From Undaria pinnatifida (Eukaryota; Sar; Phaeophyceae; Laminariales; Alariaceae), in assembly GCA_012845835.1 (NCBI GenBank), contig JABAKD010000006.1, positions 1,038,116 to 1,102,115 of the forward strand: a DNA stretch of 64,000 nucleotides, read 5' to 3'. Numbering within the stretch: position 1 is the first letter of the stretch; every line of letters starts with the position of its first letter. The notes beneath the pieces were generated by a model. That model was not told where the DNA came from. It searched no databases and was given only the letters and a program-made list of their open reading frames with translations. Position numbers and translations under genes: made by a program. This document shows, one piece after another, positions 1,474 to 59,320 of this stretch.

Positions 1474-1572
1474 CTAAATAAATAAAATTTCACATGTTCG
1501 TTCGGCTGGGTCGAATCCTGACCTTTCTCTCTTTTGTTCATCTAACGAACTTTCCCAGAGAGCCAACATTGC
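1474..1572 (-). CDS. PDE exon 15: candidate terminal exon and stop
   Basis: A 99-nt candidate coding [20 protein letters not shown] and then [12 protein letters not shown] with a TAG stop. Acceptor GGCAGCACAG|GCAATG is in phase 0, as exon 14 requires. LWESSL sits roughly where the family has PLWE, but with extra residues before it, so similarity is weak. The main support is frame, total length divisible by three, and an array of degenerate acceptor copies directly upstream, as seen at other exons of this gene. Confidence 0.5.
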   Translation of the reverse strand, partial: AMLALWESSLDEQKRERSGFDPAERTCEILFI

Positions 1573-4500
1573 CTGTGCTGCCCAAACCAGAGGTCGGTCA
1601 GGTGGTACCAACGAGAACTCCTTCCACAAGTGCAACATTTCTGGCAACTGATTGCCTGTCATCGCCACCCCCCATGGCAGTTACACAGTCAACAATCCCA
1701 CCATTAGACCGACCGGTCGTGTATGCTACCTAAACCGGAGAATCGTCGGGTGGGGCGGTACCGACAAACTTCTCCTCTCACAGGGCAACATGCTGAGAAC
1801 ACCGTAACTACTTGACCTCCCCCCCAGTGCCTCCCCCACTCAGGACGGTTACACCGTAAAAACAAAAACGATGGCCGTGACACAGTCAGAGAACAGCCCC
1901 CCCTAGATGGGCCGATCGTATCATATGCTGCCTAACCAAAGTTCGCTCGGGTGGTACGGACACCGACGAACTACTCGTGCAACATGTTGGCAACTATCGT
2001 AACTACCTGTCGTTCCCATCCCCCAGTGGTCCCCCCCCCAGGGCAGATACACCGTAAAACTAAAGCAGACTGCCGTTGCACAGTCAGAGAAGAGCCCCTC
2101 TAAATGGGCCGATCGTATCGTTGTGCTGCCTAAGCCAGAGGTCCCTCGGGTGGTGTGGATACCGACAAACAAATCCCCCCAACGAGCAACGCTACAACCA
2201 ACAACCAACTGACTGCCATCCACCGCTGTTACACGGTCGAAGAGTCCCCACTAGGTCGACCGATCGGCACCAAGTCGACCGGTCGTATGCTGCCTAAACC
2301 AGAGGTCCATGGGGTGGTAGGGTACCGACGAGTTAGCTAGTGCAACATTATTGGCAACTAACTGCCTGCCATCCCCCCAATGGCAGCTACACGGTGAAAG
2401 AGCCCCAACTAGATCGACCGGTCGGTACTAGATCGACCAATCATATGCTGCCTAATCCAAAGGCCCGTCGGGTAGAATGACACACACGAACAACTCCTCC
2501 TACAGAGCAACATTAGTGTAAACCAGCTTACTTGACGGCCAGCCTCATCCAGCGCTTCCTCCGATGGCAGTTACACGGTCCGAGGGCTCTCAACTTGATC
2601 GACTGGTCGTTCAAAGAGCCCCCACTATAAAGGCCGACCGTATGCTGCCTCAATCAGAGGTCCGCCAGGTGATACGGTACCAACGGAGAGCTCCTGCAAC
2701 AGTGCAACATATGGCAACTAACCGCAAACTCCCTGACACCCCACTCACCGCAGCTACGCTGTCAACCATCCCCCACTAGATCAGTCGACCGTTCGGTTCT
2801 TCCCCCCTTGGCAGATACAGCGTCATTGACTCGCTATCAGATCGGTCCGTTGGTGCTAGATCGATCGGTCGATAGTAGATAAACCGGTCGGTACTCGAAC
2901 GATCGGTCGGTGCTAGATCGACCGGTCGGCACTAGGCTAACCGGTTGACGCCACGCCCACTGGTTGGTAGTAGATCGATCAAGCGGTACAAGTATGACAG
3001 GTAGTTTCTAGATAAACGGGTTGGTACTGGATCAATCGTATACACGAAATCGACCGGTTGCTAGTAGACCAACCGGTCAATACTAGATCGATCTGTCGGC
3101 ACTAGATTGACAGTTCGGTACTACAGTAGATCAACAGGCCCGTCGTACTAAGTCGATCGGTCTATAGCAGATCAACCGGTCGGTAATAATTGATAGATCG
3201 ACCTGCTGGTACTAGATCGATCGGCCGATAGTGGGTCGATCGGTCGGTACTAGATCGATTGATCACTGCTACATCACCCGATGGGTGCTAGGTCTACCAG
3301 TCGGTACAAAACCAATCGAGCGGTTACGCCGCAGTTACACCTCACAAAGAACCACGGGCGCGCCACCGCGAGGAAGGAGGGGCATGGTAAGACCACACGT
3401 TTCAGAAGCATCCGCTGTATGTCGCCGGGACGTCTCAGATCATTTCTGACCACCTGTGAAAAAAAGTATTATCGGAGAGATGCGACGAGGTAAAGCATCA
3501 AAAATTGCCGACTTAAAGAAGGCGCCCGCCGCTACTTTAATACAGTATGGACCTGCCAGCAAGAAATATCAATTTCTGAAAGGCTTGAGGCCTTACTAGC
3601 TGTGACACTAGCCTTGAGCAACCTCGAGCATGGAGGCTGTTACAGATTGGCAGCGTGATTTAGTGTAGACCTCACCGCTGAGCACGATGTCTCGATCAAA
3701 TTGTTATAGGGGCCTTTCGTTCTGATCTCGGCACTTTCCTTGTTCATGGGTCTATACCGAAGATGGTTCCCTCGTATCATGCTTCGTTTACAAGTGATGA
3801 TACGGAGTGGTATGCCGCAGACCGTAGCAGTTCCGTTTCCTTAACGTATTCGTGAGGCGGTGCCAGTATTATTAATATTTTCGATCATTCTGCTTGCTTC
3901 GATCGGGATATTTTACGCACTAATACCTGTTTTTTTTCTTGCGCCCGCGGGCAAGACTGCTGTGTAAGAACAACAACGACGACCGTAGCTTGTGATGCTG
4001 TAGGTTCCGAAAGTCATTTTCTTACCTTCGGTAGTTGCTCTCGAGTGTGTTGACCCAGACCTTATCCTTGCAAAACTCTGAAAACACCGTCTGAATCGTC
4101 GTAGAATATCACCGTTCGTTTTTTGCGTGGGGATGAAAGCGAGAAAACGACAGAGAAGCGGCAGCAGCAACAACAACAACAGCAGTAGCAAGAGCAGCAA
4201 CATCAACAAATCAAAAAATGGTAAGAACGCAGACAAATGCAACTGATTTTTTGTTGCAGCAAATAAAAATTTTGTTTTTTGTATTAAAATCATTAGTCTT
4301 ACCATCTCGACGCTCGAAAAAAAAAGCAATCGCAGCAAGAAGAAAAAACTCAAGGGTTTCCACGGGTGGGGAGGACAACGAGGAAACAACGGAGACGCAG
4401 CAGCAGCATCCCATCTGTGGTCGTGATCGCTTACCGCGCACGGTCGAACGACAAAGTTGACGAAGTCGCACTGGCTCTTCGCCTGGTTGTGCCCTTCTCT

Positions 4501-7500
4501 CCCGCAAAGCGGGGAAATTGGGAGTCCCCGCTCCGCTTCAAGGTCGCCTTGTCGATGGAACTCCTCTGCGATACGATGGACAACGGATGATGTTTTCACC
4601 AACAACGCAAAATTCCAAAGTGGCAGAGGCGCGCGCACGTCGCAGAGCTTTTAGTCAGGATTCTGCTACGTGACATAAATACACACATCGCCTGCGTCAA
4701 CGGAGGAAAAAAATAAATTCCTTGAATCAGCATTGATTAATGAAATTTCAGCGTTGTATGGTAGTGTTGGGAATATTTCGGTTGGGGTCGGGGTGTTTGC
4801 GGTAATAAAATGGCGACGCCTACAAAAAAAACTACCAGGTATTTACTTTATAAATGAAATTTCGTTTGTCAGCATCAAGAAGAGGAAATATGCCAATCAA
4901 GCAAAGTGGTAATAAAATGGCGACGCCTACAAAAACACTACCAGGTATTTACTTTATAAATTAAAATTTGTTTGTCAGCGCCAAGATTAGGAAATATGTC
5001 AATCAAGCAAAGGAAAAATGCGTACTGCAAAGAGCGTTAGACCGAGTGTTCCACACTACCCCCAAGCAGTCTGGAGTCAATCAAGGCAAAGGGGCTGTCG
5101 GTCAAGGGAGTCAGAGCATCGTCTTCTAACATATTTCGTCGGCACCGTCGAGTGTTGGGTAATTTACGACGACAGCGTTGTGTCGTACCAGGAAACTCTG
5201 CAAAGGATGTCTAATGTGTGTTTGGCGGACAATCTTGCCTCATATTGCTGCTGTTATGTATTTTTAAGCTAGCTGATGTGTTTGGATCCAGTATAAATCA
5301 CAGTAATTTGCGTTACAGTGGGGCGGGCGTTCTAATCGGCAAGCAGCAGGGGTGGCAACAAGAATCACACAGCACAAAGCGAAAGCACCGTATCGGTGTC
5401 ATATGACGCAATGGAAGAAGTGCTTCTCCTGACTAGCTCGGGCGAGCATGTTGAAGACATACACACGTGGTACAACAAACTGCCCGATTGGTGGGCCATT
5501 GGCGAGACAGTCTATTCAAGTTGTTGCGCCATTGGCAATTGCATGTCCGTTGTCGTGGATTATGCATCTATCTGCGCCGCCCACGTTGCTGACCCGTGAC
5601 ACATACGTGTTGGTAGGTATTGACGGTGTAATACCATTAGCCAGTGGCCAGATTTCCTTGCTGTGGATACACGATGCGAGCTATCGACATTGTTTTCTCA
5701 GGTCGTCAGGTTTGATATTGGTTGCCACACGGCGAAAATAACGACATTTTTTGTATCTGTTTTTCCCCCGTCGGTCGTTCAGTCCGTTTTTCTTTGCTGC
5801 CAGAAAACGCCTACTCTAAACAGCGCTCGGCACACCTCCTCATGAACCACCTGTGTTCCTCGACCTCAGCTCAACAACGACCTCCACGCGACTTGCATCG
5901 CAAGCAGCGATCGCCTTGAACGCCCTAACCGGTCTTATCGCGATCCAAATCGAGCACGATAACATTCGCAAAGCAGCCGATCACTTCTGCGGAGCTAGTA
6001 ATCGCTTTGGGTAGTTGTGTGTGCATTGTATTTTGTGCCAAGATAACGTTCCTGTCCCCGGGATAGGTTTTCCCGAGACATTACCCTGCAAGACAAGGGG
6101 GGGTGAAGACACGTCGAAAATAGCAGTGGCTTCGAAAAAATATCGTCGTTTAGGGCCGTTCCTGACGAGCAATAAAAAATGTCGGAAGTCGGGACAAAAA
6201 AAAAACGTAGAAACTCTTGCGAAACGTGGTTATTGTCAGGAATCCGGACCTTGAATCGTTTAGACATACTCCAAAACAAGATGTCAGGATTCCAAACAAA
6301 AAAAACGTCCTATGCTTTAGAAAAACAAGCGTGTGTCAGCTCAGACTTTCAAGAATGTCAAAAAACAATTTCATCAGGATTTCGTCCACGCCGCGACAAA
6401 AACAAAGCGGTGGGCTCGCTGTGTCAGACCCTGCCCCCCCCCCCCGTTCCTTCGTGCCGTTGTTTGCCGTGTCGTGTTGGTTTTTTTAGCCCGACAAGCT
6501 GAATGCGGGTTCTTGACGCGCTTCATCACGGAACTCTTGCTCCGCCTCAAGATCGCCTTGTGACGCGTGCTACACTTGAGCCGGACCGTTTTCAGAATGA
6601 CGGAACTCCTTATCTTATGTAGGCCATGGTAACGTTAATCGGGAAGCACTTTCCTTTGCCTCCAAAAATGTGTTTGCCCTAGAGAGGCATATCATGGTAT
6701 AGCGTTCCTCCACCAACTGAGGAGCACCCGAAAAAATGGTTTACCCTATCGCGGAATGCCTCTTGTTCATGGAACTTCTTTGCGGAAGCGAAACAATGCG
6801 CCACGATATACACCGAAAGCGATCGTTCAAAAACGCGGATTATTTGCCAAAGCACTTTAGTTTTTTTTTTCGAGAGATCGAGTTCGTGAGCGTAATTCGC
6901 GCGGTGAACCCCGACTGGACTACAGGGCTCACCCGTAATGAGCTTCGTCCATCTCGCGTGCAAATCCCATGGTCTCATTGGATGCGCCACGTCGGCTACC
7001 TATTAGGGGATGAGGCGTCCATACGGAGGGGTTAGGGAAACAAGGGGGACACCTATTGAGAAACAGGGTATCACGAACCCCAGGCAGAGATTCACCTGGA
7101 ATAAGAAACTCGGTAGCCGGTGTACCGAAACTACAAGTGTAGAACGCACGCTCCCCCGAGTAAGAAACCCAGCCTAGGTCAGAATTTCTGCTCCTTACTG
7201 CGGTATTAAAGGGTGTCGTGTACCGTAGCTCAAGCCCAGACCGACTGATTCTTAATACGATAGCCCTCCCCAAAACCGGCGATTTCTTTTAACGAACCTT
7301 TCGTGGCTGCTAGACACGAGGAAGGATGCTATGAAAAAAAGCATCCTCAAACATGTTCCATGTTTGCAAAGGTCTATCGAGCGATGACGTCGGGGCGCCA
7401 AGGGGCACTGTATTTCAGGAAATACGATAGGGAGCTGGTTTCAAAACCGGCGATCTCGTTAAAGAAAATTTGGGGGGGCTACCGTAGTAAGATTCTACCA

Positions 7501-10500
7501 TTGGAATGGCAGGGTAGGAGTTGACCCTTAACCTTTAGGGAGGCAGTTGCTTGGCACGGGTTTTGTAGGTTTCAGTGGCAGTATGGATCTGCCACTAAGA
7601 AACAGAAATCCGAGACCTGCACCACCAACTTTGAACAACCTGCTGAACTTGCGCACTCTCAGTGGTATTCGCATTCATCAGCAGGATCTGCGCCTGCGAC
7701 AGGTCCTTCCTATCTCTTGCGCTCCCGTCCCCTTGTACCCTCTTCGTTAGTAGGCGTTTTTTTTTCTGTGCTAATATCATTCCTGCACGTTAAGGATATA
7801 CTTCAGTACGTCCGTGTTCTTCCGCGGTTCATGCTTGTTGCACCTTCAACACTATTTGCGTCAGCAGGATTTGACCTTTTTTTTTCCCATTCATCATTTT
7901 TTGCGCAAGGCCTAAACCTACATATATTCGAGCGCGAGTATGCACTCGGGGGGATTTGAACCCATGAAATCGACGCTAGCGTGAACGAGGTTCACCTACT
8001 ATTCTACCGGGAACACCGGACATGCGTACCTTCAACACCATTTGCATCAGCAAGATCTGCGCCTGGAGTGGATCCTTCCCTTGGGGTCCCTTTGCAGCAG
8101 ACGCCCCTGCGCCCGCCCCGAACCCCGGAAGCCCCGGACTTTTCGCCCCGTCCCTCGCCATGTGCGGTACGATGCTCGGGCGTCGCCCCCCCTTGGTGTT
8201 GGTTGAGGCTTTGAACCTCGCCACGTACTCGAAGCCGTGCGCCAGATCGGTCGCCAAGACTACCTACAAGGTAATTTAGGTCGCGCGCGTGGGGGGTGGG
8301 TGGAGGGGGGGCGTGACTGTTCGAGGAGCTCAATGTTGTCAGCAACAGCAGCAGTAAAGCCGTCATTCGTTGGGTGTTGGTGGAGGGGTTGAACCTTTGC
8401 CGCGTCCAAAAACCTTACGCTAGTTCGGTCGCCGAGATTGTCGACAGGATAATTTTCGGTAGCGCGCGGGGGGGGGGGGGGGGGGGGGTCATCCCACGGT
8501 AGGGGTGCAGCAGCAGAAGATTCTAAGAAATTTCTGAGTTCCTAACATGAGGAGGAGGTCAAGATCATCATCCATCACCATCATCATCATCATCACCCGA
8601 AGCATGACTGCGAAGAGGTTTGTTCGCGCAACCCGACCAACGTTTCTATGAGGAGCTCAACCGGTCACACACAATTAGTTAATCCAACAATTGCAACCTC
8701 TACCGTGGGATGACTCGGGAGTGCAGCATGCCTTGGTCGTTTGACCATCGAGCGCGCACTCCGTTAGAGTCGGAGCACCGTTCACACTCCTGATAGAGAC
8801 ATCTGCAACATTCTGGACGCTGGCCTCGTAACGTTATACGGTTGTAAGCTCGGAGTTGAAAATGGAGATAAAACCCAGAAAAAAGGAAGAAAAAGCTGTT
8901 GAGGTGGGACATGATAGGACGGGCGCATCACCATCACCGGAGGGTTGTGCCGTACACCAAAAACGTCACAGAAGCAGCAGCAAAGCCGCCCGCTCTAGTG
9001 TTGGTTGAATCTTTGAACCGCGCCACGCGCCGCGTGCGATACTGCATTCGCCAAGAATATCTACAGGGTGTTTTTCGATCGAAGGCGGGGGGGCGGGGGG
9101 GGTTGAGGTAGGACATAGTTATTGGGTCGCGCACCATTGTCGGCAGCAGAAGCAGCGGCTGTAAAGCCGGTCTCCTTTCGTGTGGGTTGAGACTTTGCAT
9201 CGCGCGGTGTTCTCAAACTCGCGCACTAGATCGGGCGCCAAGTTTTTACCCACAGGGATTTTTCAGTTGTCGGTGTTCAGGGTGGAGTCTGAGGGTGGCC
9301 GAGGTGGTTGGGCCGCGCGCGTGATTGTCACCATGAGGGTTATCAGCTGTTCACGAAAAACGTCTCTAGCTTTAGTATCGCATTTTGTTTAATCTCACCG
9401 TACTTTTTAGGTATGCACCGTGTGTTAAATCAACTCGATTGCCGACACAACGGTGTGTGCTACCGTGGCTATGCACCCAGCGTGACCCAACGTTCCTGTT
9501 GCTCACTATCGATAAGGGTGGCCTACCTTGATGACGAATTGGCGGAAATGTCGCATGTCGTCGATCGTCAACCCGCTGAGGATGTCGGTGCGGTCGTCGT
9601 AGATTATCTTGAACGCTTCTGCTATGTGGAAGTTCTCCAGCACTGACGCGTCGTTGTACGTGATGGCTAAGCTGTCCTTCGACTGGAGGTGCGGTTCCAG
9701 GATTTGGGGAGGATTACAGATGGTCCACGTGTTAGAGAGAATCGCAACGATAGCATCTGTGCGGTAAACTTCCGGGTGACGGCTGCTTCGAAACTGTTGG
9801 CTTAGTTGGATTGATTTGGCCGTTTGGTTGGCCGATTGGTGTGTACTGACGCATTGTTGTATATACGTGATGGCCAAGCTATTCTTTGACTGCCACTGCC
9901 GTTCCATGATTTGAGGGTTAAAGGTGACCCATGCGTTAGGATCACGTTCCATATGTTGGCGATTTAGGTGACACCTGCATGTGTTAGAGGATTGCAACGG
10001 TTGCACCCTGTACGGCTAGCTTGTCCGGGATATCCGCCTAAAAAAACCTTCTCGTCGATTGATTGGTTTGGTCAGTTGGTTGGTCAAAACTTGTGCGGAA
10101 AGGCTACGCTGTCCTTCGCCTGCCGCCGTCGTCCCATGATTTTGGGTTGGAAACGATACCTTCAGCAAGGCTGCGTTCCGTGACGGGAATGAAGATGATC
10201 ATGTGCTAAGACTGCAATCATTGTACGGGTATGTGGGAGGTCTCCAGGACTGACGCGTTGCTGCACAATACGTGATAACTACGCTGCCTTTCGACTAGAG
10301 TTGGCGTTCCACGAGTTGGGAGCTACATGACAGTAGTGGCGATGATAGGAAACGAGGATTATTGTATGGGCGGTGACCAAACTTGGCATAAATGCAGAAA
10401 TTTCTTTAAACAGCTTCACGACATTACTGCGACGTTGTCTCCTGGAAAACAAAACATTATTTTTTATGGTCGTTTCACCCGTCTGTGACAAAATAACAAT

Positions 10501-13500
10501 GCACCCTTGAAGTAACTGTTTACGAGTGGACGACGTTCGAAAGACTACACGTCGACGGCTGATGCTATAGCTTTTCTATCATGACATTTGCGAGCGATTG
10601 TGAAGTTTTACCAAAAACTAAGGACCCCTGTCGAGATGGCCGAAGCCGGAACACACGACCGCCGCCGCCGCCGATCACCAACGATTATGGGGGTTGGATA
10701 CATACAACGCGTATTTTCGGTAGAAATGATCAATTATTAATGATTGCCGGCGGCCTGCCATGGTGAGAGCCGCCAACGAAGCTGAGACACGCAGTCAACA
10801 CACCCTTCTATTCCCAAGTGTTCTTTGTCGGCTCTCCGGTTTAACACGCCCCTTCCCATGACGACGCCAGATTTTTTACGCAAAATCAGATCGAACGTTT
10901 CTTGGTAAGCATCATCACGGTACTCGCTTTCGACATATTTAAACCCTTTTCCAATTTTCCAAGAAGTTGTTGTTGTTGCTGTTGTTGTTGTTGTTGTTCT
11001 CACATTAACTCGCATTATCAAGTCCGTCGTCACAGGACAGGCTCCAGTCACTCTGGAGCTGAGGAATGCCCCAGGGAAAAAACAATAACAAACCAAAGGT
11101 GGTACACACATATATCACAGCAGACGCGATTAATGCTCCACCAGAAACATATAAAAAGTGAAAGCGGGAGTCAGCCTACGATGTGCCAGGTCCATACTGG
11201 TGCATACGACTCACTACTCGCACCTGGAAAACCGACCATATACCGCGTGCCACCCAAGAAAGTATTTGTATGAAAATACGTGGAAGTGTGGTGAGCTAAA
11301 GCTTTGTTTTTCCCCATCCGCCGGAGGATAAAAAAAAAAAATAACTACCACGTATATAAATTGCACGTGGTACCTAGCACTACGTATACGCACGGCAGGC
11401 GCAAGTCAATTGGAACAAGAAGTATCCTGGCCCAACTCCAAGCGTTTTCTCCTGGACTCGTGCTACGTTAGAGACCGAAAAATTAGACTAAATATGCTAT
11501 GACCGCATATGTTATGGCCGCCGGGATTCCTGAACAGCAGGGAAGTACATTACTAGGTAGATTTTTATGTGATACAGAATTAGTCGACGTATGCCTACGT
11601 CATGGGGTTGTTCCTCGGGTTTTACACGCTGTTTGTATCAAAATCAGTTTTTCGGTGCTGTATAAGAGCTCTTCATCTAAGCAACGAGCCTCAGAACGAA
11701 GCAGGCGCATCTGTAACGTACTACGGAAAGAGCTCGGAGCATGCGTCCCACCGTGTTGGCGGTGCGGCGCTAACCGGGTTGCAACGATCAGCGCGTGATT
11801 AAACCCATTTTTCCCGATGTACTTTCACGAGGGACGGCGCCTATTTGCTCAAGTACAGTCCACACCCCTATTATTGTAGTGCATTTGTGTTCTACGCTTG
11901 AAACGCTTGAAATGGAGTGCTCAGCAGACCACACCACCTTTTTTGATTGGTCAACACCTCTACCTTCATTCCGTCCGAACCGGATCCCATTTGGTGCCTT
12001 GCTCCCATTCAGTAGATGCGTTAGGGTTAGGTTTAGGGTTAGTGGAATGGCGTATGGACTGTAAATAGTTGCTCTCTTCACGAGGAGGGTTTCTTGCGAA
12101 CAGAGACGGTAAGACGAGAGCTATGACGGACGCACTGTACCTCTTTTTGGCGGAAATAATCTGACTGAAGGAATTGGCCAACAATTTTTAATTCCCGCTT
12201 ATATGTTTTACAATACCTAGGCCGTGGGTTTGTTCATCGAGGCAGGCGTTTTTATTCTTCATGTCAGTTTAGGGATGGGGTATAGACATGTACAAGTGAA
12301 CTTTTGGAGTCACCCCCCTCTACGGTAGCATTCGCCTACCTTAAAGATGAGGGTTTCTTGTGAATAGAGGCGGTTCTGTGTGGGTATGTGTACTTTTGAA
12401 ACGGTTTTCAAGGTATTCATGCAGTATGGTTTTTTTTTTTTTTTGAGGCAATATCTGTTTGACCTTACCTTCGTCAAGAAGCCATTGTTAACCCCTCTGT
12501 GTCGATAGTCGTGTACGATCGCCGACACAAGCAGTGCGAATCCCTGCAAAGCTTTAATCCCCGAAGAAACGATCTGTGCCCGGATAAAGAAGCAAGCCAA
12601 GCATGACATGGTGTGGAATGCTTTAGTACAAAGACTGCGGTAGGGTCCAACACCGACACCAACACCAACACCAACACCAACACCGACACCGACACCAACA
12701 CCAACACCAACACCAGCACCAACACCAACATCAACACCAACACCAACACCAACACCAACATCAACACCGACACTCTGACCATCACCAACGCCACCACCAC
12801 CACCACCACAACCGAATAATTGCTGAGCGTTGTCCGCGCATGCGCTTCCATGAGGCACCACCGGTTAAGGCAAAACCTAAACTAAATCAGCACTCGCTCA
12901 AGATACTCACCAAATAGTCACAAGAGAGTTTAATGCCCACGGATGCTGTCACAAAAAGAGAGTGCAAAGCTTCACGAATTGTCACAATAGAGTACAGTCC
13001 TCACCGAATTTTCACAAGACGAGTGTGCAATACTCACCGAACTGTCACAAGAGAGCTCAGAGATCATTGAACCGTACAATACGCGCCGAATTATCATCAG
13101 AAAGCAAAATACCCACTGAATTACCGCAAAGAAAGCATATTTCTCACCGAGTTATCACAAAAGTGTGCCACGGTCAACGTGACATCTGCCGCGTGTACAG
13201 AAGTGTGGTAAGGGTTGGGAGCCGCTGGGTCGAAGCAGTAGTTTTGCTCGATGTGCGCCAAGAACCTCGACAAATTCTGCAAGTAAGCAAGCAGTTGGGT
13301 CGACACGTGAGTTACGGTTAGAGACTTCAGAAGACGGTCAGTTAAAGGAAAATGTTCCGCGGTCAAGGATAGCAGTCAAACCGATCGTTCCACACTAAAA
13401 AGTAGTAGTTTAGCGTCAGTCAAGGCAAATGATTGGAAAGTTGCCCTCTGTCAAGGGGTGAAAGTTCCGTCTCCCGACGCCTTCCACACTAAACCTAGCA

Positions 13501-34500: not shown

Positions 34501-34628
34501 TAGCCGTCGTTCGCAGGTACGGTGGCCGCCGTCTGTGTGATTTCCAATGTAAAGAAGTTCCTTGCGTTCCCGCCAGGGGAACGTTCGATTTTTGTGGTGG
34601 TCTGCACAATTCACAACATTATTATTAT

Positions 34629-34666
<38 letters not shown>

Positions 34667-55600: not shown

Positions 55601-57155
55601 CGACTCGGAAGGGGTGCGTGGTCAATGGTCAAATGACTAAGGCAAGCAACAAATGAGTACGCCCCCCGTAGCATTTGTCGTACAACACACGCAGCTCGCA
55701 ATTCTGAGTTTCGACGCAATCCTCGACCTCCCAGCTGGCGTGCTTTTCAAATAACGCCTCCTTATGCAGGAGGCGTTCTTCTTATCGTACGCGAAGGACA
55801 AACGGACAATGCCATCATGACGAGTAGGCATCTCTGCCCACAAGGAAGCCGGAAAGAAAGCAACTCGTTCTTCTCCTTAAGAATAATCCTATACTTGGAG
55901 TATTGCCGCTATTGGGAGTGGACACCCTTGCTCATACTGCACAAGGAAACAGACAATAAGAAAACGTCGCCGTTCCATATAAGTATTTTATAAAACCATT
56001 CTAAACGCGTCAGTTGTGATTTCGATAAATTTAGGGTCGACACTCATCTTTGCAAGCTTGTGACGGTATTAGAACAAGATGTTACGCATTTATTATTACG
56101 TTTGCCATCCGACTCAGTGTGCAGCGTGTCAATCGCAAGAAGGGTGACGAAGAATCAATCACAATCGTAAGGAGATATTTCTGGACAGGAGGCAGACAAC
56201 GAAACAAGCGTCGTCGTTTTTTGTCCTTACCAAGCTTGACTGTTGAAGATCAGGTGCCGCCATTACGTCAACACGAGTGGACACATTTTATAAAATTTGC
56301 CCATGAGATATTGGGCAACGAAAACACGTCGCCGTTCCTTCATCATTCATAAGACATTTATGTAACTAAACAGAAGGGAGGCAAGGAAAACACCTTGCCT
56401 GATATAGTTATTTGTTCTTGTCATACATCATACATGAAGAGCAAGCCTAAGCTGCCGTCTTTTAGAGATATTTCTGCAAAAGGAAGCGCGCAACGGAAAC
56501 CGTTGCTCTTCTTTATCCCACTTGAAGAACAAACCTAACCCGCCGTCATTACGAATGAGTAAACGTCTTATCAATAGCTCACACATAAGAAAGCGGGGAA
56601 CGAAATAAACGTTGTCGTTCCTTATCGCACCACACCTTACCCGGAAAGCAACCCTTAACTGTGCAGTCATACGAGTACAAGTAGACGTTTTGCTCAATGG
56701 AAGACCGGGAAGAAAATTACCGTCGTCCCTTGCAACCTAGAATCGCCTACGTTACGAGCACAGACATGTAGACGTCTTCGCTCATACAAAAAATATGAAG
56801 CAGACAACAAAAACAACGTCGCTCCCTATCATACACAAATATGGGTTTAAATGTAAGAATTCTTTTCTGTATTAACACGAGTGCTAAATGCTCCTTATAT
56901 TTACGTAGAGGTTGGTGCCAGACGTACCTGAAGAAAAAATGCCGCCGCGCTTACAAGGAGCGGAAACCAACTCCTCTCCACAAGCTGCAGCACAAGCGCC
57001 ACCAGCATCAGCAGTAGCGAAGCCAGCCCAGAACACAGAAAAGCTAACCGGCCCATGCTGTTACCCCCCCCGCCCGCCCCCGCCCCGCTACCCGTCATCC
57101 CCTCACTCCTGGTTTTCACCATCAATTGTCGCGTGTGCACCATCCGCCCCCTCAT
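1474..57155 (-). CDS. membrane-anchored class I cyclic-nucleotide phosphodiesterase, 15 exons
   Basis: Predicted enzyme hydrolysing cAMP and/or cGMP to the 5' monophosphate, held in a membrane by two N-terminal helices. Exons in coding order (high-low): 57155-56928, 48119-47757, 42019-41931, 41734-41545, 35972-35853, 34165-34073, 33135-32998, 26037-25948, 13276-13148, 12573-12469, 9682-9527, 8263-8030, 6999-6933, 4565-4435, 1572-1474. They sum to 2232 nt with all phases compatible and GT..AG at every intron. The catalytic domain covers about residues 408-715: H461 and H465 ([10 protein letters not shown]), H501-D502 ([13 protein letters not shown], which fits the PDEase I signature), D648 (VADVAHP) and Q699 (SQCDFVNF). 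The sequence shows frame, splice sites and motifs; family role is established knowledge; substrate is unknown. Exons 5-7 and 15 are the least certain, and a small exon supplying the usual W-x-F-D segment before exon 8 may be missing. Confidence 0.85.
1573..2775 (-). repeat. tandem echoes of the exon 15 acceptor region
   Basis: About seven degenerate copies, spaced roughly 147-200 bp, each with CCTAAACCAGAGGTC-like sequence at about 1583, 1730, 1930, 2128, 2291, 2451 and 2647. On the minus strand each reads as pyrimidine tract then GGTTTAGGCAGCAT. The copy at 1573-1590 is the acceptor of exon 15. Each unit also carries GACCGGTCG, which expands further upstream. Confidence 0.75.
2780..3310. repeat. 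GATCGACCGGTCGGTACTA satellite
   Basis: Degenerate tandem repeats of about 18 bp based on TAGATCGACCGGTCGGTAC, which is largely self-complementary. The core word also occurs inside the adjacent exon 15 echo unit at about 2410-2450, so this array probably grew from that unit. Confidence 0.8.
3310..4434. other. intron 14 remainder
   Basis: Intronic sequence with a CAGCAACAACAG-type triplet tract near 4,160-4,210. No mobile element ends were identified. Long minus-strand frames here are read-through from exon 14. Confidence 0.5.
4435..4565 (-). CDS. PDE exon 14: nucleotide-clamp region
   Basis: A 131-nt exon: [20 protein letters not shown] and then [19 protein letters not shown], ending RPCA. 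It matches the EFF-x-QGD-x-E-x-x-x-G-x-x-x-S-P and SQ-x-x-F-x-x-x-V-x-P segments of class I PDEs. Q699 is the expected purine-binding Gln and F702 the stacking Phe. Acceptor ATCGCAG|AGGAGT and donor GCG|GTAAGC. Confidence 0.92.
4799..5016. repeat. two-copy 110-bp tandem duplication
   Basis: Two head-to-tail copies (about 4799-4908 and 4909-5016) share GGTAATAAAATGGCGACGCC and end AATCAAGCAAAG, differing by a few substitutions and indels. Both carry TACCAGGTA. Confidence 0.85.
5020..6520. other. intron 13 body, no clear feature
   Basis: Mixed-composition intronic sequence. A plus-strand frame at 5396-5599 is compositionally protein-like but has no recognised family or splice partners. Nothing else could be supported. 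Confidence 0.4.
6525..6800 (-). repeat. degenerate copies of the exon 14 5' end
   Basis: Three minus-strand segments resemble the start of exon 14 (AGGAGTTCCATCGACAAGGC): about 6525-6560 with circularly permuted order, 6592-6620, and 6765-6800 (CGCAAAGAAGTTCCATGAAC). They lie upstream of exon 14 in its intron. The last keeps the acceptor-side CGCA but has lost the AG. Confidence 0.6.
6933..6999 (-). CDS. PDE exon 13: last metal aspartate
   Basis: A 67-nt exon coding [20 protein letters not shown] and then IT plus one base. D648 is the expected final metal ligand (usual motif C/A-A-D-L/V-x-x-P). Acceptor CCTAATAG|GTAGCC and donor CGG|GTGAGC. The single base G is completed by AG at the start of exon 14 to give Glu, the only phase 1 intron. 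Confidence 0.9.
7257..7498. mobile_element. MITE family B copy
   Basis: Terminal inverted repeats of the type TTCTACGGTAGCCCCCCC bound about 240 bp. Conserved internal words are GAAATCGCCGGTTTTGAAACC, split by variants, and CTCGACACGAGGAAGGATGC. Non-autonomous, no ORF. Other copies are at 20590, 32334, 38549, 39632, 41264, 42375, 45418 and 53506. Confidence 0.7.
7640..7890 (-). repeat. degenerate copies of the exon 12 3' end and donor
   Basis: Two copies lie downstream of exon 12. At 7830-7880 the minus strand reads [10 protein letters not shown] followed by GTGCAA, a diverged version of [16 protein letters not shown]. At 7655-7700 a second copy keeps AQILLM and then diverges. Confidence 0.7.
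7925..8012 (-). repeat. tRNA-like SINE head fragment
   Basis: On the minus strand a B-box-like GGGTTCAAATCC is followed by CCCCGAGTGCATACTCG, as in the dispersed SINE family. No complete cloverleaf was found, so it is not called as a tRNA gene. Confidence 0.4.
8030..8263 (-). CDS. PDE exon 12: LATD segment with Gly/Ala-rich insert
   Basis: A 234-nt, phase 0-0 exon of 78 codons. It starts [20 protein letters not shown], giving the family sequence FVIK-VVLATDL across the junction, and ends [11 protein letters not shown], leading to VADVAHP. Between these lies a Gly/Ala/Pro-rich insert at about residues 588-632, where the family usually has a loop of some 20 residues. Acceptor CTTGTAG|GTAGTC and donor AAG|GTACGC. 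A split into two smaller exons is possible, but the continuous frame needs none. Confidence 0.85.
8345..9270 (-). repeat. degenerate copies of the exon 12 5' end and acceptor
   Basis: Three copies upstream of exon 12, at about 8345-8470, 8965-9085 and 9150-9270. Each contains a TTGGTTGAGGCTTTGAACC-like core (antisense to ARFKASTNT) and, in most, an acceptor-like TACAGG/CACAGG followed by a G-rich run, as next to the real exon. Confidence 0.75.
8465..8800. mobile_element. dispersed repeat family E copy
   Basis: Starts TCATCCCACGGTAGGGGTGC and ends CTCTACCGTGGGATGAC, inverted-repeat-like ends. Similar ends and an internal CTTAGAATCTGCTGCTGCAC segment (or its complement) occur near 17,700, 24,300, 29,950, 40,800 and 47,220. 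Confidence 0.5.
9527..9682 (-). CDS. PDE exon 11: catalytic helices
   Basis: A 156-nt, phase 0-0 exon: [40 protein letters not shown], then [12 protein letters not shown]. It aligns with the LA-x-x-YND-x-S-V-L-E-N-H-H segment of class I PDEs; the first His of ENHH is Phe here. Acceptor CACCTCCAG|TCGAAG and donor AAG|GTAGGC. Three degenerate copies of its 5' end and acceptor lie upstream in the preceding intron. Confidence 0.93.
9836..10345 (-). repeat. degenerate copies of the exon 11 5' end and acceptor
   Basis: Three copies at about 9836-9990, 10085-10210 and 10235-10345, upstream of exon 11. Each carries a diverged form of GACGCGTCGTTGTACGTGAT and GCTGTCCTTCGACTG, i.e. [13 protein letters not shown] in antisense, plus about 100 bp of acceptor-side intron. 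Confidence 0.8.
10965..11220. repeat. dispersed repeat D (copy 1)
   Basis: A TTG triplet tract followed by about 220 bp starting TTCTCACATTAACTCGCAT. A second copy with the same order and words such as ACCCCAGGGAA/GCCCCAGGGAA lies at 34,628-34,885. Nature unknown; perhaps a retroposon. Confidence 0.6.
11265..11342 (+). mobile_element. retroposon 3' end with A-rich tail
   Basis: Shared 3' sequence GTGGAAGTGTGGTGAGCTAA, then CCCCATCCGCCGGAGGATAA and an A run. The same end occurs at 17,970-18,062 (minus), 23,690-23,765 and 36,205-36,258. The A tail suggests LINE-mobilised elements. Confidence 0.55.
11345..12300. other. intron 10 body
   Basis: No exon recognised. Short plus-strand frames at 11,499-11,802 show no family match. 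The sequence GAGGGTTTCTTG occurs here (12,085) and at 12,345, and may be a faint echo of the exon 10 donor side. Confidence 0.4.
12469..12573 (-). CDS. PDE exon 10: HD metal-binding motif
   Basis: A 105-nt, phase 0-0 exon: [20 protein letters not shown] followed by [16 protein letters not shown]501-D502 are the central metal ligands. [12 protein letters not shown] fits the PDEase I signature even though the commoner D and P of HD-x-D-H-P-G are both Arg. Acceptor CCGGGCACAG|ATCGTT and donor AAG|GTAAGG. Confidence 0.93.
12650..12815. repeat. CCAACA hexamer microsatellite
   Basis: About 25 copies of ACCAAC with ACCGAC and ATCAAC variants, followed by a short ACC run. It lies in the 574-bp intron between exons 9 and 10, only about 75 bp from the exon 10 acceptor. 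Confidence 0.9.
12885..13147 (-). repeat. tandem echoes of the exon 9 3' end and donor
   Basis: About eight degenerate copies immediately downstream of exon 9. The plus-strand word CTCACCGAATTGTCACAAGA in variants matches the antisense of TTGTGATAACTCG|GTGAG. Copies lie near 12,908, 12,936, 12,968, 12,997, 13,034, 13,086 and 13,110. Several keep GTGAGT/GTGAGG in donor position. Confidence 0.85.
13148..13276 (-). CDS. PDE exon 9: general-acid and first metal histidines
   Basis: A 129-nt, phase 0-0 exon: [40 protein letters not shown], then DNS. It carries the YHxxxHAADV motif, with H461 as the expected general acid and H465 as a metal ligand. The Asn usual after the first His is Thr here. Acceptor TTACTTGCAG|AATTTG and donor TCG|GTGAGA. 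Degenerate copies of both ends occur in the two flanking introns. Confidence 0.93.
13385..17220. repeat. 107-bp satellite with 10-unit higher-order structure
   Basis: About 30 near-identical 107-bp units from 14,074 (start GGTAGTAGTTTGGCGTCAGT) to about 17,220, preceded by about six older, diverged units from 13,385. The variant CATACCCGG (for CGTACCCGG) recurs at 14281, 14923, 15351, 15993, 16421 and 17068, i.e. spacings of 6, 4, 6, 4 and 6 units. A TCTGG variant at 15045 and 16115 is exactly 1070 bp apart. A 5-bp insertion near 16,565 is the only length change seen. No coding frame. Confidence 0.97.
17450..17770. mobile_element. dispersed repeat family E copy
   Basis: Begins with three copies of GTTGTTGGATTTACTAATAA-like sequence. 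It then matches other family copies (GTCGGGTTGTGCGAACGAA, AAATTTCTTAGAATCTGCTG) and ends CACCCCTACCGTGGGACG. Confidence 0.5.
17970..18062 (-). mobile_element. retroposon 3' end with A-rich tail
   Basis: Reverse orientation of the 11,265 family: a T run, CATCCTCCGGCGGATGGGG, then TAGCTCACCACACTTCCACG. Confidence 0.55.
18500..18690. repeat. GACCC pentamer tract inside a dispersed repeat
   Basis: A (GACCC)n run at 18,548-18,582 is flanked by sequence ending GAGCCGGGTCATGGCCC. Related blocks lie at 32,690-32,955 and 45,250-45,730. Confidence 0.6.
18705..18845 (-). mobile_element. SINE family, partial
   Basis: Matches the body of the SINE family (CTTCTGGACAAAGTCGTGGTC, GGGTTCAG) without the tRNA-like head. 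Confidence 0.45.
19127..19383 (-). mobile_element. MITE family A copy
   Basis: Ends are GCGCGCTACGATAGAGGT and ACCTCTGCCGCAGCATGCGTC, imperfect inverted repeats, with the family's internal AAGGAGCCCCGTCATTCAG. About 257 bp, no ORF. Confidence 0.75.
19600..19775 (+). mobile_element. SINE family, body fragment
   Basis: Shares GAGCAGTGGGATTGCTGAACC and CCAGAAGCTGGAAAGTAGA with full copies; the tRNA-like head is missing. Confidence 0.5.
20155..20460 (-). mobile_element. tRNA-derived SINE
   Basis: About 305 bp. On the minus strand the head carries an A-box-like GGTGGCGTATGAGG and a B-box-like GAGTTCGAGTCCC. The body continues to CCAGAAGCTGGAAAGTAGA and a T/A-rich end. Closely related to the copies at 26,280 and 36,265. 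Confidence 0.65.
20590..20795. mobile_element. MITE family B copy
   Basis: Conserved ATGGCTGCTCGACACGAGGA and GAAAACCGGCGATTTCGT, ending GGGGCTACCGTAGAA. Confidence 0.65.
20890..22125 (-). repeat. degenerate copies of the exon 9 5' end
   Basis: Four copies at about 20,890-20,985, 21,600-21,700, 21,815-21,920 and 22,020-22,120; the last three are about 215 bp apart. The antisense reads NLSRFL-H-x-x-QNYC with changes. At the position of the exon 9 acceptor CAG the copies read CAG, CGG, CGG and CAA respectively, so most have lost the splice site. They lie 7.6-8.8 kb upstream of exon 9. Confidence 0.85.
20985..21530. repeat. dispersed repeat F (copy 1 of 3)
   Basis: Shares GTCGTATGACCGTAGACCCT, CGGAGCACGTCGGGTTTTC and GTGTTCGGCGAGTCGCATGA with copies at 27,065-27,660 and 40,075-40,505. 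In antisense the best-conserved part gives a protein-like stretch. Confidence 0.7.
22188..23105. repeat. 61-bp minisatellite
   Basis: About 15 degenerate copies built on TTAACGCCTTCTACAACCGG and ATTTTTGGTGGACATA, with an ACTCGGAATTAGTACC spacer. Short frames inside are repeat products. Confidence 0.92.
23313..23643. repeat. 26-bp minisatellite
   Basis: About 12 copies of GACCCGAAGGACTATCGCTA plus TGGTGG, with minor variants. Three reading frames stay open because 26 is not a multiple of three; these are not genes. Confidence 0.95.
23690..23765 (+). mobile_element. retroposon 3' end with A-rich tail
   Basis: Matches the family at 11,265 (GTGGAAGTGTGGTGAGC, CCCCATCCGCTGGAGGAT, A-rich). Confidence 0.55.
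24100..24360. mobile_element. dispersed repeat family E copy
   Basis: Contains the family's CTGCTGCACACAACTAGCGT and GGGATGACTC end, and a diverged middle. Confidence 0.4.
24430..24550. repeat. short inverted repeat
   Basis: AAAAAACAATGGTTGGCACA near 24,443 is inverted as GGTGCACCAACCATTGTTTTT near 24,520, a possible hairpin or foldback element. Confidence 0.6.
24926..24997. repeat. CCAA tetranucleotide microsatellite
   Basis: About 18 copies of AACC/CCAA with one interruption. Confidence 0.95.
25948..26037 (-). CDS. PDE exon 8: start of catalytic domain
   Basis: A 90-nt, phase 0-0 exon coding [20 protein letters not shown] and then [10 protein letters not shown]. Acceptor TTTTGACAG|GAGCTG and donor GCG|GTAAGC. 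It matches the helix region that opens class I PDE domains (x-L-x-G-G-x-x-L...L-F...F-G-I-D). It joins exon 9 as [19 protein letters not shown], as expected for the family. The next intron is the largest at 12.7 kb. Confidence 0.85.
26280..26575 (-). mobile_element. tRNA-derived SINE
   Basis: About 295 bp. On the minus strand the head reads GGTGGCGTATCAGG (A-box-like) and GAGTTCGAGCCCC (B-box-like). The body matches the other copies and ends at CCAGCTTCTGG antisense plus a T/A-rich end. Confidence 0.7.
26640..26887 (-). mobile_element. MITE family A copy
   Basis: Ends GCGTGCTACGATAATAGAGG and ACCTCTGCCGTATCATGCG, internal GTTAAGGAGCCCCATCATTC. No ORF. Confidence 0.75.
27065..27660. repeat. 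dispersed repeat F (copy 2 of 3)
   Basis: The longest copy of the family at 20,985 and 40,075, with the same internal order. Confidence 0.7.
27980..28600. repeat. tandem repeats with ACCC and CAGCAGTAC tracts
   Basis: Three diverged units share GACTCCCACGTACAGAACGG, a CCACCCACC tract and ACCAAACCTTTACTACATAC, then CAGCAGTACGTACAGCAGTA. Frames within it are repeat products. Confidence 0.8.
29340..29655 (+). mobile_element. protein-coding repeat fragment (copy 1), degraded
   Basis: Homologous to 55,370-55,656. Shared amino acids include [12 protein letters not shown] and KASNK before a stop; this copy has frameshifts. It looks like the 3' end of a transposable-element ORF, but no RT or other catalytic motif was seen. 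Confidence 0.5.
29690..29960. mobile_element. dispersed repeat family E copy
   Basis: Contains TTCTGACCGATTGAGCTC, AGTCATGTTCCGGGCGAGAT and a CTAGCGTGGGATAACTAAC end, as in 46,985-47,250. Confidence 0.45.
30207..31600. repeat. degenerate GGTT tetranucleotide array
   Basis: About 1.4 kb of GGTT/AACC repeats with many GATT, GGTC and GTTT variants. It lies in intron 7 of the PDE gene. Thr/Asn/Gln/Pro-rich antisense frames are artefacts of the repeat. Confidence 0.95.
31605..31718 (-). other. possible exon or gene fragment
   Basis: The minus strand has acceptor-like CTCTTGTCGCAG|GACAAC, then [20 protein letters not shown] and [20 protein letters not shown] without stops. No good donor follows, and a GGTT repeat follows directly. 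It lies between PDE exons 7 and 8 but does not resemble the missing PDE segment. Confidence 0.3.
32334..32586. mobile_element. MITE family B copy
   Basis: Ends TTCTATGGTAGCCCGCCC and GGGGGCTATCGTATTAAGAA; internal AAATCGCCGGTTTTGAAACC. Confidence 0.75.
32690..32955. repeat. GGGTC pentamer tract in dispersed repeat
   Basis: About 16 copies of GGGTC at 32,803-32,885 inside a repeat related to 18,500-18,690 and 45,250-45,730. Confidence 0.8.
32998..33135 (-). CDS. PDE exon 7: acidic linker leading to catalytic domain
   Basis: A 138-nt, phase 0-0 exon of 46 codons starting [20 protein letters not shown] and ending LPGNDGVLD. Acceptor GTGCACAG|GGTGCG and donor GAC|GTATGC. An alternative donor, CAG|GTCTGG, would give a 28-codon version also in phase 0. 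The usual W-x-F-D segment of PDE domains is not visible at its end, so a small following exon may be missing. Confidence 0.65.
34073..34165 (-). CDS. PDE exon 6: basic helical linker
   Basis: A 93-nt, phase 0-0 exon coding [20 protein letters not shown] and then [11 protein letters not shown]. Acceptor TTTTGGGCAG|GTCGGG with a pyrimidine-rich tract; donor CCG|GTATGT. The other two frames contain stops, so the frame is unambiguous. Function is not recognised. Confidence 0.7.
34628..34885. repeat. dispersed repeat D (copy 2)
   Basis: TTG tract plus about 220 bp homologous to 10,965-11,220. Confidence 0.6.
35141..35440 (+). mobile_element. MITE family A copy
   Basis: Starts GCCACGATAGAGAG and ends GCGCACCTCTACGTAGCAC; internal GGGGTTCCTTAACCC and a 20-base G run. 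No ORF. Confidence 0.7.
35853..35972 (-). CDS. PDE exon 5: linker
   Basis: A 120-nt, phase 0-0 exon of 40 codons starting [20 protein letters not shown] and ending [10 protein letters not shown]. Acceptor TATTTTAAG|GTGGCT and donor GAG|GTGGGT. The frame stays open upstream to about 36,086, so an earlier acceptor cannot be excluded. A possible tiny extra exon ([12 protein letters not shown], followed by GTAAGT) lies just upstream at about 36,112-36,147. The sequence has no recognised domain. Confidence 0.65.
36205..36258 (+). mobile_element. retroposon 3' end with A-rich tail
   Basis: GTGTGGTGAGCTCAAGCTTT, CCCCATCCGCCGGAG and an A run, directly followed by the head of a SINE. Confidence 0.5.
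36265..37800 (+). mobile_element. SINE split by a nested Mutator-like element
   Basis: The SINE head lies at 36,265-36,359 (GGTGGCATATCAGG, GAGTTCAAGTCCC) and its body resumes at 37,589 and runs to about 37,800 (GAGCAGTGGGATTGCTGAACC, CCAGAAGCTGGAAAGTAGA). The interruption is the element at 36,360-37,588. Confidence 0.75.
36360..37588. mobile_element. long-TIR Mutator-like non-autonomous element, 1229 bp
   Basis: Starts GAGCAATGGCCGAAATCAGG and ends with its exact complement, CCTGATTTCGGCCATTGCTC. The terminal inverted repeats extend about 340 bp (36,360-36,700 against 37,245-37,588) with few differences. It is flanked by a perfect 9-bp target duplication, CTCGTATAA, at 36,351-36,359 and 37,589-37,597. 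Long TIRs plus 9-bp duplications are typical of Mutator-like elements. The roughly 540-bp centre has no transposase-sized ORF. Confidence 0.88.
38200..38480 (+). mobile_element. MITE family A copy
   Basis: Ends TGCGTGCTACGGCAGAGGT and ACCTCTATCGTAGCACGCGT; internal CTTCTTAACCCAAAATCGTC. No ORF. Confidence 0.8.
38549..38870. mobile_element. MITE family B copy, with G-rich insertion
   Basis: Ends CTGCGGCAGCCCCTCCAAC and GGGGGTATCGTGGAATCAG, longer than other copies because of an added segment near 38,780-38,860. Confidence 0.65.
38931..39217 (+). mobile_element. MITE family A copy
   Basis: Ends GACGTACGCTACGATAGAGG and GCGCCTATATCGTAGCATGC. No ORF. Confidence 0.8.
39632..39870. mobile_element. 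MITE family B copy
   Basis: Ends ATTCTACGATAGCCCCCC and GGGGGGGCTACCGTAGAA, well-matched inverted repeats. Confidence 0.8.
40075..40505. repeat. dispersed repeat F (copy 3 of 3)
   Basis: Same order of conserved words as the copies at 20,985 and 27,065. Antisense protein-like segments are conserved but interrupted. Confidence 0.7.
40550..40835. mobile_element. dispersed repeat family E copy
   Basis: Contains GTTGGTCGGATTGCGCGAGC, CCTTCGAAGACATGTTCCGG and a GAGCTCAGACAATTTC end. Confidence 0.45.
40862..41262. repeat. dispersed repeat G (copy 1)
   Basis: About 400 bp starting CTGTAATGGAGTGCCCTCCG and ending CCCCCACTCGGAGTACCACT. Copy 2 at 61,200-61,580 has the same order, including ACGTCAAGGCCATC/ACGTCTCAAGGCC and CTATCCAGCGAGCCATGAGG. 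Confidence 0.75.
41264..41508. mobile_element. MITE family B copy
   Basis: Ends CTACATAGCCCCCCC and GGGGGGTATCGTAGAATCAG. It abuts repeat G directly. Confidence 0.75.
41545..41734 (-). CDS. PDE exon 4: N-terminal region
   Basis: A 190-nt exon whose first base completes the split Ser codon. It reads [20 protein letters not shown] and continues to VVNRMVGE. Acceptor GACGCAG|TCTCCC and donor GAG|GTAAGC. It is part of the region before the catalytic domain and has no recognised domain of its own. The boundaries are well supported by phase and splice consensus. Confidence 0.8.
41931..42019 (-). CDS. PDE exon 3: N-terminal helical region
   Basis: An 89-nt exon coding [16 protein letters not shown] and then [12 protein letters not shown]. 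The acceptor CACCCCAG|GTGGCA follows a pyrimidine-rich tract and the donor is CAG|GTGGGC. It leaves two bases (AG) of a codon that exon 4 completes as AGT (Ser), the only phase 2 intron in the gene. A following short intron of 196 bp and the exact frame match make this pair convincing. Confidence 0.8.
42375..42633. mobile_element. MITE family B copy
   Basis: Ends GTTCTACGTTAGCCCCCCC and GGGGAGTTCTCGTAGAATCA. Confidence 0.75.
42640..43125. repeat. 110-bp tandem repeat with GCGCGAGTGAC palindrome
   Basis: Four to five units start near 42,672, 42,784, 42,893 and 43,000 (GGAGGCGTTTTTTGCGGTGG). Each carries GGTCACTTGCGCGAGTGACC, a near-perfect palindrome, then GGCGGCCGTAAGCTCAAGAC. Confidence 0.9.
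43325..43815. repeat. 73-bp tandem repeat
   Basis: Seven units of about 72-73 bp with GGTACCCCCCTACCGTAGCC and AGAGGTATACCCTTTTTTGG. The reverse orientation occurs at 49,020-49,340 and 49,640-49,890. The 127- to 151-residue frames inside are repeat products. Confidence 0.95.
44090..44245. repeat. telomere-like tract (TTAGGG-type) in dispersed repeat
   Basis: GGTTAGGGATAGGATTAAGG, then GGGTTAGGTTTAGGG, followed by AAAGAGTATGCCAACTATTT and TCTCGAAAAAGCGGTAAGG. The inverted equivalent lies at 50,565-50,700, and a related copy at 63,600-63,720. Confidence 0.75.
45250..45425. repeat. GACCC/GGGTC-rich dispersed repeat
   Basis: Degenerate GGGTC and GACCCG words resembling 18,500-18,690 and 32,690-32,955; it continues at 45,680-45,730 beyond an inserted MITE B copy. 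Confidence 0.5.
45418..45661. mobile_element. MITE family B copy
   Basis: Ends TTCTGCGATAACCTTCTCCC and GGGCTGCCGTAAAACGG, inserted in a GGGTC-rich repeat. Confidence 0.65.
46686..46960 (+). mobile_element. MITE family A copy
   Basis: Ends CACATACTACAGTAGAGGTA and ACCTCTATTGTAGCACGCGT. The centre is diverged. No ORF. Confidence 0.65.
46985..47250. mobile_element. dispersed repeat family E copy
   Basis: Contains CTGACCGGTTGAGCTCCTC, GCCTTCGAAGTCATGTTTCG, CTTAGAATCTGCTGCACCCC and GCGGGATGACTC. Confidence 0.55.
47757..48119 (-). CDS. PDE exon 2: end of helix 2 and disordered linker
   Basis: A 363-nt, phase 0-0 exon of 121 codons with acceptor TTCCAG|GTGGTA and donor CAG|GTGAGG. Its first residues VVCGAMLW complete the hydrophobic helix begun in exon 1. 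The rest is Ser/Thr/Pro/Gly-rich and probably disordered. It ends ETPLQQ, which runs into [11 protein letters not shown] of exon 3, a helical start typical of PDE N-terminal regions. This is the largest exon. Confidence 0.75.
48215..48525. repeat. ACAAC pentanucleotide array
   Basis: About 60 copies of CACAA with substitutions. It lies just upstream of PDE exon 2. The Cys/Val antisense frames and Thr/Gln/His plus frames are artefacts. Confidence 0.95.
48610..48945. repeat. three 118- to 120-bp tandem repeats
   Basis: Three units share TCACCCAGTG, GGTAATGTAAGGACC and TATTTATTGCCCAATGGCCA, then AGTACACTTCCGTTCAGAGC. The plus-strand frame is open across two units ([18 protein letters not shown]) but has no known family. 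Confidence 0.9.
49020..49340. repeat. 73-bp tandem repeat, reverse orientation (block 1)
   Basis: Four units with CCAAAAAAGGGTATACCTCT and GGCTACGGTAGGGGGGTACC, complementary to the 43,325 array. The preceding 48,957-48,980 contains GGGTCACTCGCGCGAGTGAC. Confidence 0.93.
49425..49575. repeat. CCCCCCTGAAATATATCA-type repeats
   Basis: Six or seven degenerate units of about 20-25 bp with ATATCACCCCCCCC and GAAACATATCA. Confidence 0.8.
49640..49890. repeat. 73-bp tandem repeat, reverse orientation (block 2)
   Basis: Three to four units as at 49,020, then ACATGAGCCAGTCGCGCGAG, which matches the inverted flank of the 43,325 array. Confidence 0.93.
50565..50715. repeat. telomere-like CCCTAA tract in dispersed repeat
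   Basis: CCCTAAACCTAACCCTAACC followed by AACGCAACCAACCAACC and CCCTTCGTCTCGTACACAGT; inverted relative to 44,090-44,245. Confidence 0.8.
51805..52105 (-). mobile_element. diverged SINE
   Basis: Body CTGGACAAATCCGTGGTCAC is related to the SINE family. The minus-strand head has a B-box-like GTGGGTTCCAGTC. Confidence 0.45.
52110..52490. repeat. repeat H, two copies, with tRNA-like segment between
   Basis: TTAGTCCGTTTGACCACTTG and CAAAAGGTTAACC at 52,120 and 52,410, and also near 50,200. Between them, 52,330-52,395 has minus-strand GTGGGTTCAAGCCCC, B-box-like, but no foldable tRNA. Confidence 0.6.
52985..53165. repeat. foldback repeat around an AT microsatellite
   Basis: CAGCCGTGAGATCGA with TTTGCAAGCTGCGTG on the left is mirrored by CAGCTTGCAAAGATGAG and TCGATCTCACAGCTGG on the right. 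Fragments of the TTTGCAAGCTGCGTG word recur near 33,560, 44,890, 55,690 and 56,050. Confidence 0.6.
53506..53748. mobile_element. MITE family B copy
   Basis: Ends TTCCACGGTAGCCCCCCC and GAGGCTATCGTAGAATCAG. Confidence 0.75.
54430..54880 (+). mobile_element. MITE family A copy expanded by AAGAAAGGTCTT repeats
   Basis: Ends GACGCGTGCTACGATAAAGG and GGTGCACCTCTATCGTC. An internal run of about 17 AAGAAAGGTCTT units (54,625-54,830) makes it longer than other copies. Confidence 0.8.
55018..55092. repeat. hairpin-forming inverted repeat
   Basis: GGGATGTCGGGATGGTGAAA, then ATATTCTGGTT, is mirrored by AACCAGAATATTTCCACC and ATGATCCCGACATCCCG with a loop of about 10 bases. Confidence 0.8.
55370..55656 (+). 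mobile_element. protein-coding repeat fragment (copy 2)
   Basis: A 93-codon open frame ([13 protein letters not shown], then [16 protein letters not shown], ending KASNK) homologous in DNA and protein to 29,340-29,655. Probably the 3' end of a transposable-element ORF. No enzyme motif was recognised. Confidence 0.5.
56928..57155 (-). CDS. PDE exon 1: start and first membrane helix
   Basis: Encodes 76 residues from an ATG at 57155, although the frame stays open further upstream. A basic N-terminus and Gly/Ala-rich stretch precede a hydrophobic helix at about residues 37-59 ([20 protein letters not shown]). A second hydrophobic run starts at W63 and continues into exon 2. The donor is CAG|GTACGT, phase 0. 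A second possible donor, CTT|GTAAGC (exon end 56955), is also in phase 0. The echo repeats downstream centre closer to that inner site, so the exact end is open. The helix continuing into exon 2 favours the longer form. Confidence 0.65.

Positions 57156-58622: not shown

Positions 58623-59320
<698 letters not shown>

What the first reader, a model, noticed from the sequence alone, without database searches (positions are those of the whole stretch)
1474..57155. Splice boundaries of one gene are repeated inside its own introns ('boundary echoes')
At exons 1, 9, 11, 12, 14 and 15 the exon edge plus adjoining intron recurs as degenerate copies. Copies of an exon's start lie only upstream of it; copies of an exon's end lie only downstream. 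At exons 9 and 12 both sides show it. Coding sequence is thus repeated only where it touches an intron. This suggests introns here grew by repeated local duplication across splice sites. Tandem duplication spanning AGGT is a proposed route of intron gain, but many ordered, decaying copies per boundary is not a pattern I know.
Basis: partly seen in the sequence, partly recalled or inferred. Interest (0 to 1): 0.92.

Follow-up and report, generated by a model that had tools for sequence, protein, structure and literature searches.

The report
Splice junctions caught in tandem repeats
In a gene with very long introns, probably from a kelp, the edges of several exons are repeated as decayed copies in the neighbouring introns because local stretches of DNA were duplicated across the splice sites, a kind of repeat previously described in lancelets and found here in other genes of the same genome too.

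Summary
The gene lies on the minus strand and encodes a 3',5'-cyclic nucleotide phosphodiesterase (PF00233). At exons 9, 11, 12 and 15 the splice junction with its flanks recurs as roughly 60-80% identical copies in the adjoining intron, far above shuffled DNA; exons 9 and 12 show it on both sides (their ends weakly). Exons 1 and 14 were not confirmed.

Of 84 junctions tested in phosphodiesterase, PEP carboxylase, Cu-ATPase, G-alpha and kinesin genes, 15 carry such copies, and all 35 copies lie on the predicted side. But junctions are not preferred: 201 of 900 random positions in the surrounding 264 kb have equally good local copies, and rates track each gene's own background.

Best explanation: frequent local tandem duplication, blind to splice sites; those across a junction persist only where the outermost splice site is still used. 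Copies decay without coding constraint and are not ordered by age from the exon.

This matches the "mirages" of amphioxus; I found no report of it in this lineage. Some decoy donors score above the donor inferred to be used, which makes splice-site choice testable. No RNA data were available.

The parts
1474..1647 (-). PDE exon 15 (last; stop codon 1476-1474), acceptor CAATCAG|TTGCC
   Evidence: frame and phase continue exon 14; fit to a PDE C-terminus judged by eye
1745..2824 (-). echo array of exon 15 start; copies 1862-1745, 2029-1937, 2254-2136, 2412-2300, 2779-2655
   Evidence: (E 0.03 to 6e-10), longer alignments
4435..4565 (-). PDE exon 14 ([24 protein letters not shown]...); no echo confirmed
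   Evidence: PF00233 positions 170-220, PDB match, echo test
6933..6999 (-). PDE exon 13 ([21 protein letters not shown]); no echo
   Evidence: weak second stretch of a PDB match (5.3 bits), echo test
7571..7877 (-). echoes of exon 12 end: 7873-7815 and 7725-7623
8030..8263 (-). PDE exon 12 ([18 protein letters not shown]...)
   Evidence: coding scan and frame; PDE motif recalled
8383..9380 (-). echoes of exon 12 start: 8488-8383, 9114-9006, 9311-9188
9527..9682 (-). PDE exon 11 ([27 protein letters not shown]...)
   Evidence: PF00233 positions 55-108, PDB matches
9843..10384 (-). echoes of exon 11 start: 9939-9843 and 10320-10230; the second extends over the whole exon at 62% identity
12469..12573 (-). 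PDE exon 10 ([35 protein letters not shown]); no echo
   Evidence: metal-site motif, PF00233 match C55:1050560-1050742; start corrected by eye from paralogue L029 and retested
12899..13066 (-). echo array of exon 9 end, units of about 30 bp, three with a GTGAG donor
   Evidence: TRF 12903-13055; not significant
13148..13276 (-). PDE exon 9 ([43 protein letters not shown])
   Evidence: motif search and frames; PDE motif recalled
20883..22069 (-). echoes of exon 9 start: 20984-20883, 21701-21605, 21910-21808, 22069-22016, separated from the exon by a 107-bp satellite and dispersed repeats
30052..30164 (-). probable PDE exon 8 ([40 protein letters not shown]); start not settled; end shows no echo
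   Evidence: assigned by eye to a recalled PDE N-terminal motif
56928..57155 (-). predicted exon 1 (signal-anchor-like by eye); no homology shown; no significant echo
   Evidence: coding scan, frames, echo test

Best explanation
The echoes are degenerate local tandem-duplication arrays that overlap splice junctions, the arrangement called 'mirages' in amphioxus. In this genome short stretches of DNA are duplicated locally at a high rate in and around genes. When a duplicated stretch contains a splice junction, the mRNA is unchanged only if the outermost site keeps being used: the 3'-most acceptor and the 5'-most donor. So extra copies of an exon's start are left upstream and extra copies of its end downstream, inside the intron. 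There they decay without coding constraint, multiply by array turnover and lengthen the intron. Shown: the copies, their locality, the side rule, the lack of coding constraint in 11 copies of the own gene, junction rates no higher than background. Inferred: that the outermost sites are used in mRNA, that each array began with a tandem duplication across the junction, and that selection explains the side rule.
For: 15 of 84 junctions, located by family match or (Cu-ATPase, G-alpha, some own exons) by eye, have junction-spanning copies (15 of 70, 0 of 14); 35 of 35 copies on the predicted side, against 70 upstream only, 66 downstream only and 65 both at 201 random positions with copies. Rates are near or below each gene's own background. 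Windows with any local copy fall into the exon: 22/70 at 120 bp inside the intron, 17/70 at the junction, 14/70 at 40 bp into the exon, 3/30 mid-exon, 67/300 random. For seven echoing junctions scanned over 264 kb on both strands, chunk matches at E below 0.01 lie within 10 kb on the same strand, none beyond; whole-genome searches with the E12 and E15 junctions return only self. In 11 copies mismatches by codon position are 87/76/74 and 9 of 11 meet a stop. In 38 copies the exon side matches at 0.79 and the intron side at 0.71, as expected if only the exon master is constrained. Six of eight PEPC copies resemble each other (60-82%) more than the exon (59-67%), a sign of turnover within the array.
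Against: No RNA data. In the E11, E12, E15 and L044 arrays most copies are closer to the exon than to each other, which repeated seeding from the boundary would also give. The exon-intron difference is small in the longer alignments (divergence 0.247 vs 0.270). Among unverified exon candidates 3 of 9 echoing junctions had copies on the wrong side, and an uncertain PEPC junction (943710 start) has a wrong-side match below the E threshold. Three of the 15 junctions have uncertain or low-complexity boundaries, and E9 end depends on the random seed.
Confidence: 0.85

Rival explanations
1. Splice sites themselves provoke duplication (for example AGGT microhomology, R-loops or repair of nicked introns), so introns grow from their ends in repeated steps.
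For: Echoes occur at both ends of several exons and repeat many times; mostly star-like relations in the E11, E12, E15 and L044 arrays.
Against: No enrichment at junctions over random or gene-body positions; identity does not fall steadily with distance at E11, E15 or L044, though it does at E12 start.
Confidence: 0.07
2. The copies are functional: alternative or recursive splice sites, or decoys that regulate splicing of long introns.
For: GT kept in 19 of 25 donor copies (15.1 expected from flanking identity) and AG in 13 of 20 acceptor copies (12.2 expected); six scored copies in three arrays have donor scores above the used one (hand-made donor matrix).
Against: Dinucleotides are kept at 0.85-0.88 per base against 0.79 for the exon side, little above what a constrained master predicts; no coding constraint; most other scored decoys are equal or weaker; no RNA evidence.
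Confidence: 0.05
3. Exon edges were recruited from intron arrays (exonisation), not the reverse.
For: Array units extend into the exon.
Against: The repeated part of E11 is conserved phosphodiesterase sequence, and that of E9 looks so by recalled motif, so the exon is the older.
Confidence: 0.02
4. Dispersed repeats or assembly artefacts.
For: The window is rich in dispersed repeats and satellites.
Against: Copies are local and same-strand and mostly 20-40% diverged, unlike misassembled haplotypes.
Confidence: 0.01

Closest known systems
[quoted passage not shown] Adh3, globins BflGb6 and BflGb9, troponin C, and similar repeats in PGBD5)
   Same: [quoted passage not shown] units of 150-160 bp in BflGb6 and 157 bp in BflGb9 (PMC3087553 and PMC3902484, passages read)
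   Different: Here another lineage, older copies (mostly 60-80% identity against 81-100% among BflGb6 units), several exons of one gene and several unrelated genes, measured against a background; splicing not tested
[quoted passage not shown] potato RdRp case)
   Same: Duplication crossing an intron-exon boundary (PMC4974935, passages read)
   Different: There a new intron arises; here existing introns lengthen and no new intron is shown
Introner elements
   Same: Many copies linked to introns (recalled)
   Different: Introners are dispersed with a common sequence (recalled); here the arrays tested are private to their junction

Membership tests
Mirage (boundary-spanning minisatellite) | Tandem copies that contain the exon-intron boundary | tested here: met
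Mirage (boundary-spanning minisatellite) | Both 5' and 3' boundaries can be affected | tested here: met
   6 starts and 9 ends, plus E9 start
Mirage (boundary-spanning minisatellite) | Many but not all units keep AG/GT | tested here: met
   19 of 25 donor and 13 of 20 acceptor copies
Mirage (boundary-spanning minisatellite) | Normal mRNA splicing despite the copies | not testable with these tools
   no RNA data
Mirage (boundary-spanning minisatellite) | Length instability between haplotypes | not testable with these tools
   one assembly held
Intron gain by tandem duplication | A new intron position absent from relatives | not tested
   no related genomes held
Introner elements | Same sequence dispersed over many introns | tested here: not met
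   (close copies only)

The most novel reading that the evidence does not exclude
Across this genome, splice-site-spanning tandem duplication is a standing source of intron lengthening, and the spliceosome uses the outermost junction through arrays that include equal or stronger decoys, which would mean unusually strict exon definition and would make these genes a natural test of how splice sites are chosen.
Probability: 0.3. Interest if true: 0.7.

Novelty: new member of a known kind. Interest (0 to 1): 0.45.

Why it matters
It extends a pattern known from lancelets to a very distant lineage, with a measured rate (15 of 84 junctions sampled) and a background control, and gives natural arrays of near-alike splice sites in which it can be asked how the spliceosome finds the right one. 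It also points to a source of intron length other than transposons. Gene predictors may be misled by such copies.

Tried and rejected
Plus-strand Pfam scans of most of the window gave only a PT-repeat match in simple sequence and matches below the curated cut-offs. A weak PDB match to dihydrofolate reductase at about 10315-10605 on the plus strand (E 0.002) was dropped: no thymidylate synthase was found and its start overlaps an echo of exon 11; one search was in another frame and so did not retest it. Minus-strand Pfam scans of 17-27 kb and 38-48 kb gave only matches below cut-off. An automatic exon search was too strict; exons 2-7 were not resolved. A fixed nucleosome-like unit was considered because of 145-160 bp spacings, but nearest spacings at random positions peak broadly over about 80-220 bp. 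De novo exon candidates in the window and the 200 kb around it (57 junctions, 9 with copies, 3 of them wrong-sided) served only as leads, because their exons are unverified; a stretch with a reverse-transcriptase-like frame (window-relative 70-126 kb) was left out. Organism: 511,146,479 bp in 68 contigs is close to the published Undaria pinnatifida assembly (511,280,173 bp in 114 scaffolds; PMC7058681, passages read); this is an inference. Literature: searches (listings with the start of abstracts) showed no brown-alga or stramenopile report that I recognised; the original Adh mirage paper was not held (identifier recalled).

Rows set aside: one search left out four echoing junctions (PEPC 943710 start, G-alpha end, Cu-ATPase w144867 end: uncertain or low-complexity; and E9 end) and used E9 start in addition. 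Without the first three, would be 12 of 67. In one search the Cu-ATPase w144867 end and E9 end gave no copy at its score threshold; its 45 copies include uncertain junctions and one wrong-side copy. E10 start was mis-set by 30 bp and retested (none). E9 end passes E 1e-3 but not. Junctions outside the own PDE gene were placed by an automatic rule. Cu-ATPase and G-alpha exons were recognised by eye from recalled motifs. In one search two of eight PEPC copies (35-48% to everything) are outside the turnover statement. In one search the exon 9 array lists only GT sites scoring above 2. L-loci of other PDE genes have 1.5 kb flanks, so copies farther away are missed.

Full report
What the gene is. 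The finding's two ends are an ATG at 57155 and a stop codon at 1476-1474, both on the minus strand. Pfam PDEase_I (PF00233) matches minus-strand frames at 4590-4438 and 9688-9527 and at 12627-12445. PDB phosphodiesterases align to the first two and, weakly, to 6999-6937. Exons with the metal-binding motifs were found at 13.2 and 12.5 kb. Exons 9-15 could be placed with frames that join, partly by eye; exon 1 rests on a coding scan and exons 2-7 were not resolved.

Noticed in passing
window 13592-17215: Satellite of 107-bp units, about 34 copies, most 97-100% identical, inside the intron before exon 9; 112 matches listed on many contigs of the genome, this array included.
   Followed up: partly
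window 36360-36702 and 37246-37588: Inverted repeat with 343-nt arms, 98% complementary, 543 nt apart: looks like a recent mobile element or palindrome.
   Followed up: no
window 7243-7495, 20599-20799, 32325-32589, 38539-38780, 39624-39878, 41272-41512, 42371-42641, 45410-45666, 53499-53756: A dispersed family of about 200-270 bp in both orientations within this one gene.
   Followed up: no
window 12903-13055 and L044: Predicted decoy donors stronger than the donor inferred to be used.
   Followed up: partly
window 30244-31581 and 58623-59317: Long simple-repeat tracts (GTTG-like, 1.3 kb; hexamer, 0.7 kb).
   Followed up: no
G000:C2:16034374-16037637 and 16063521-16066784: Two kinesin-domain loci with identical match scores 29 kb apart: a recent gene duplication or an assembly duplicate.
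   Followed up: no
window 10315-10605, plus strand: Weak dihydrofolate reductase-like match (E 0.002), probably chance.
   Followed up: partly
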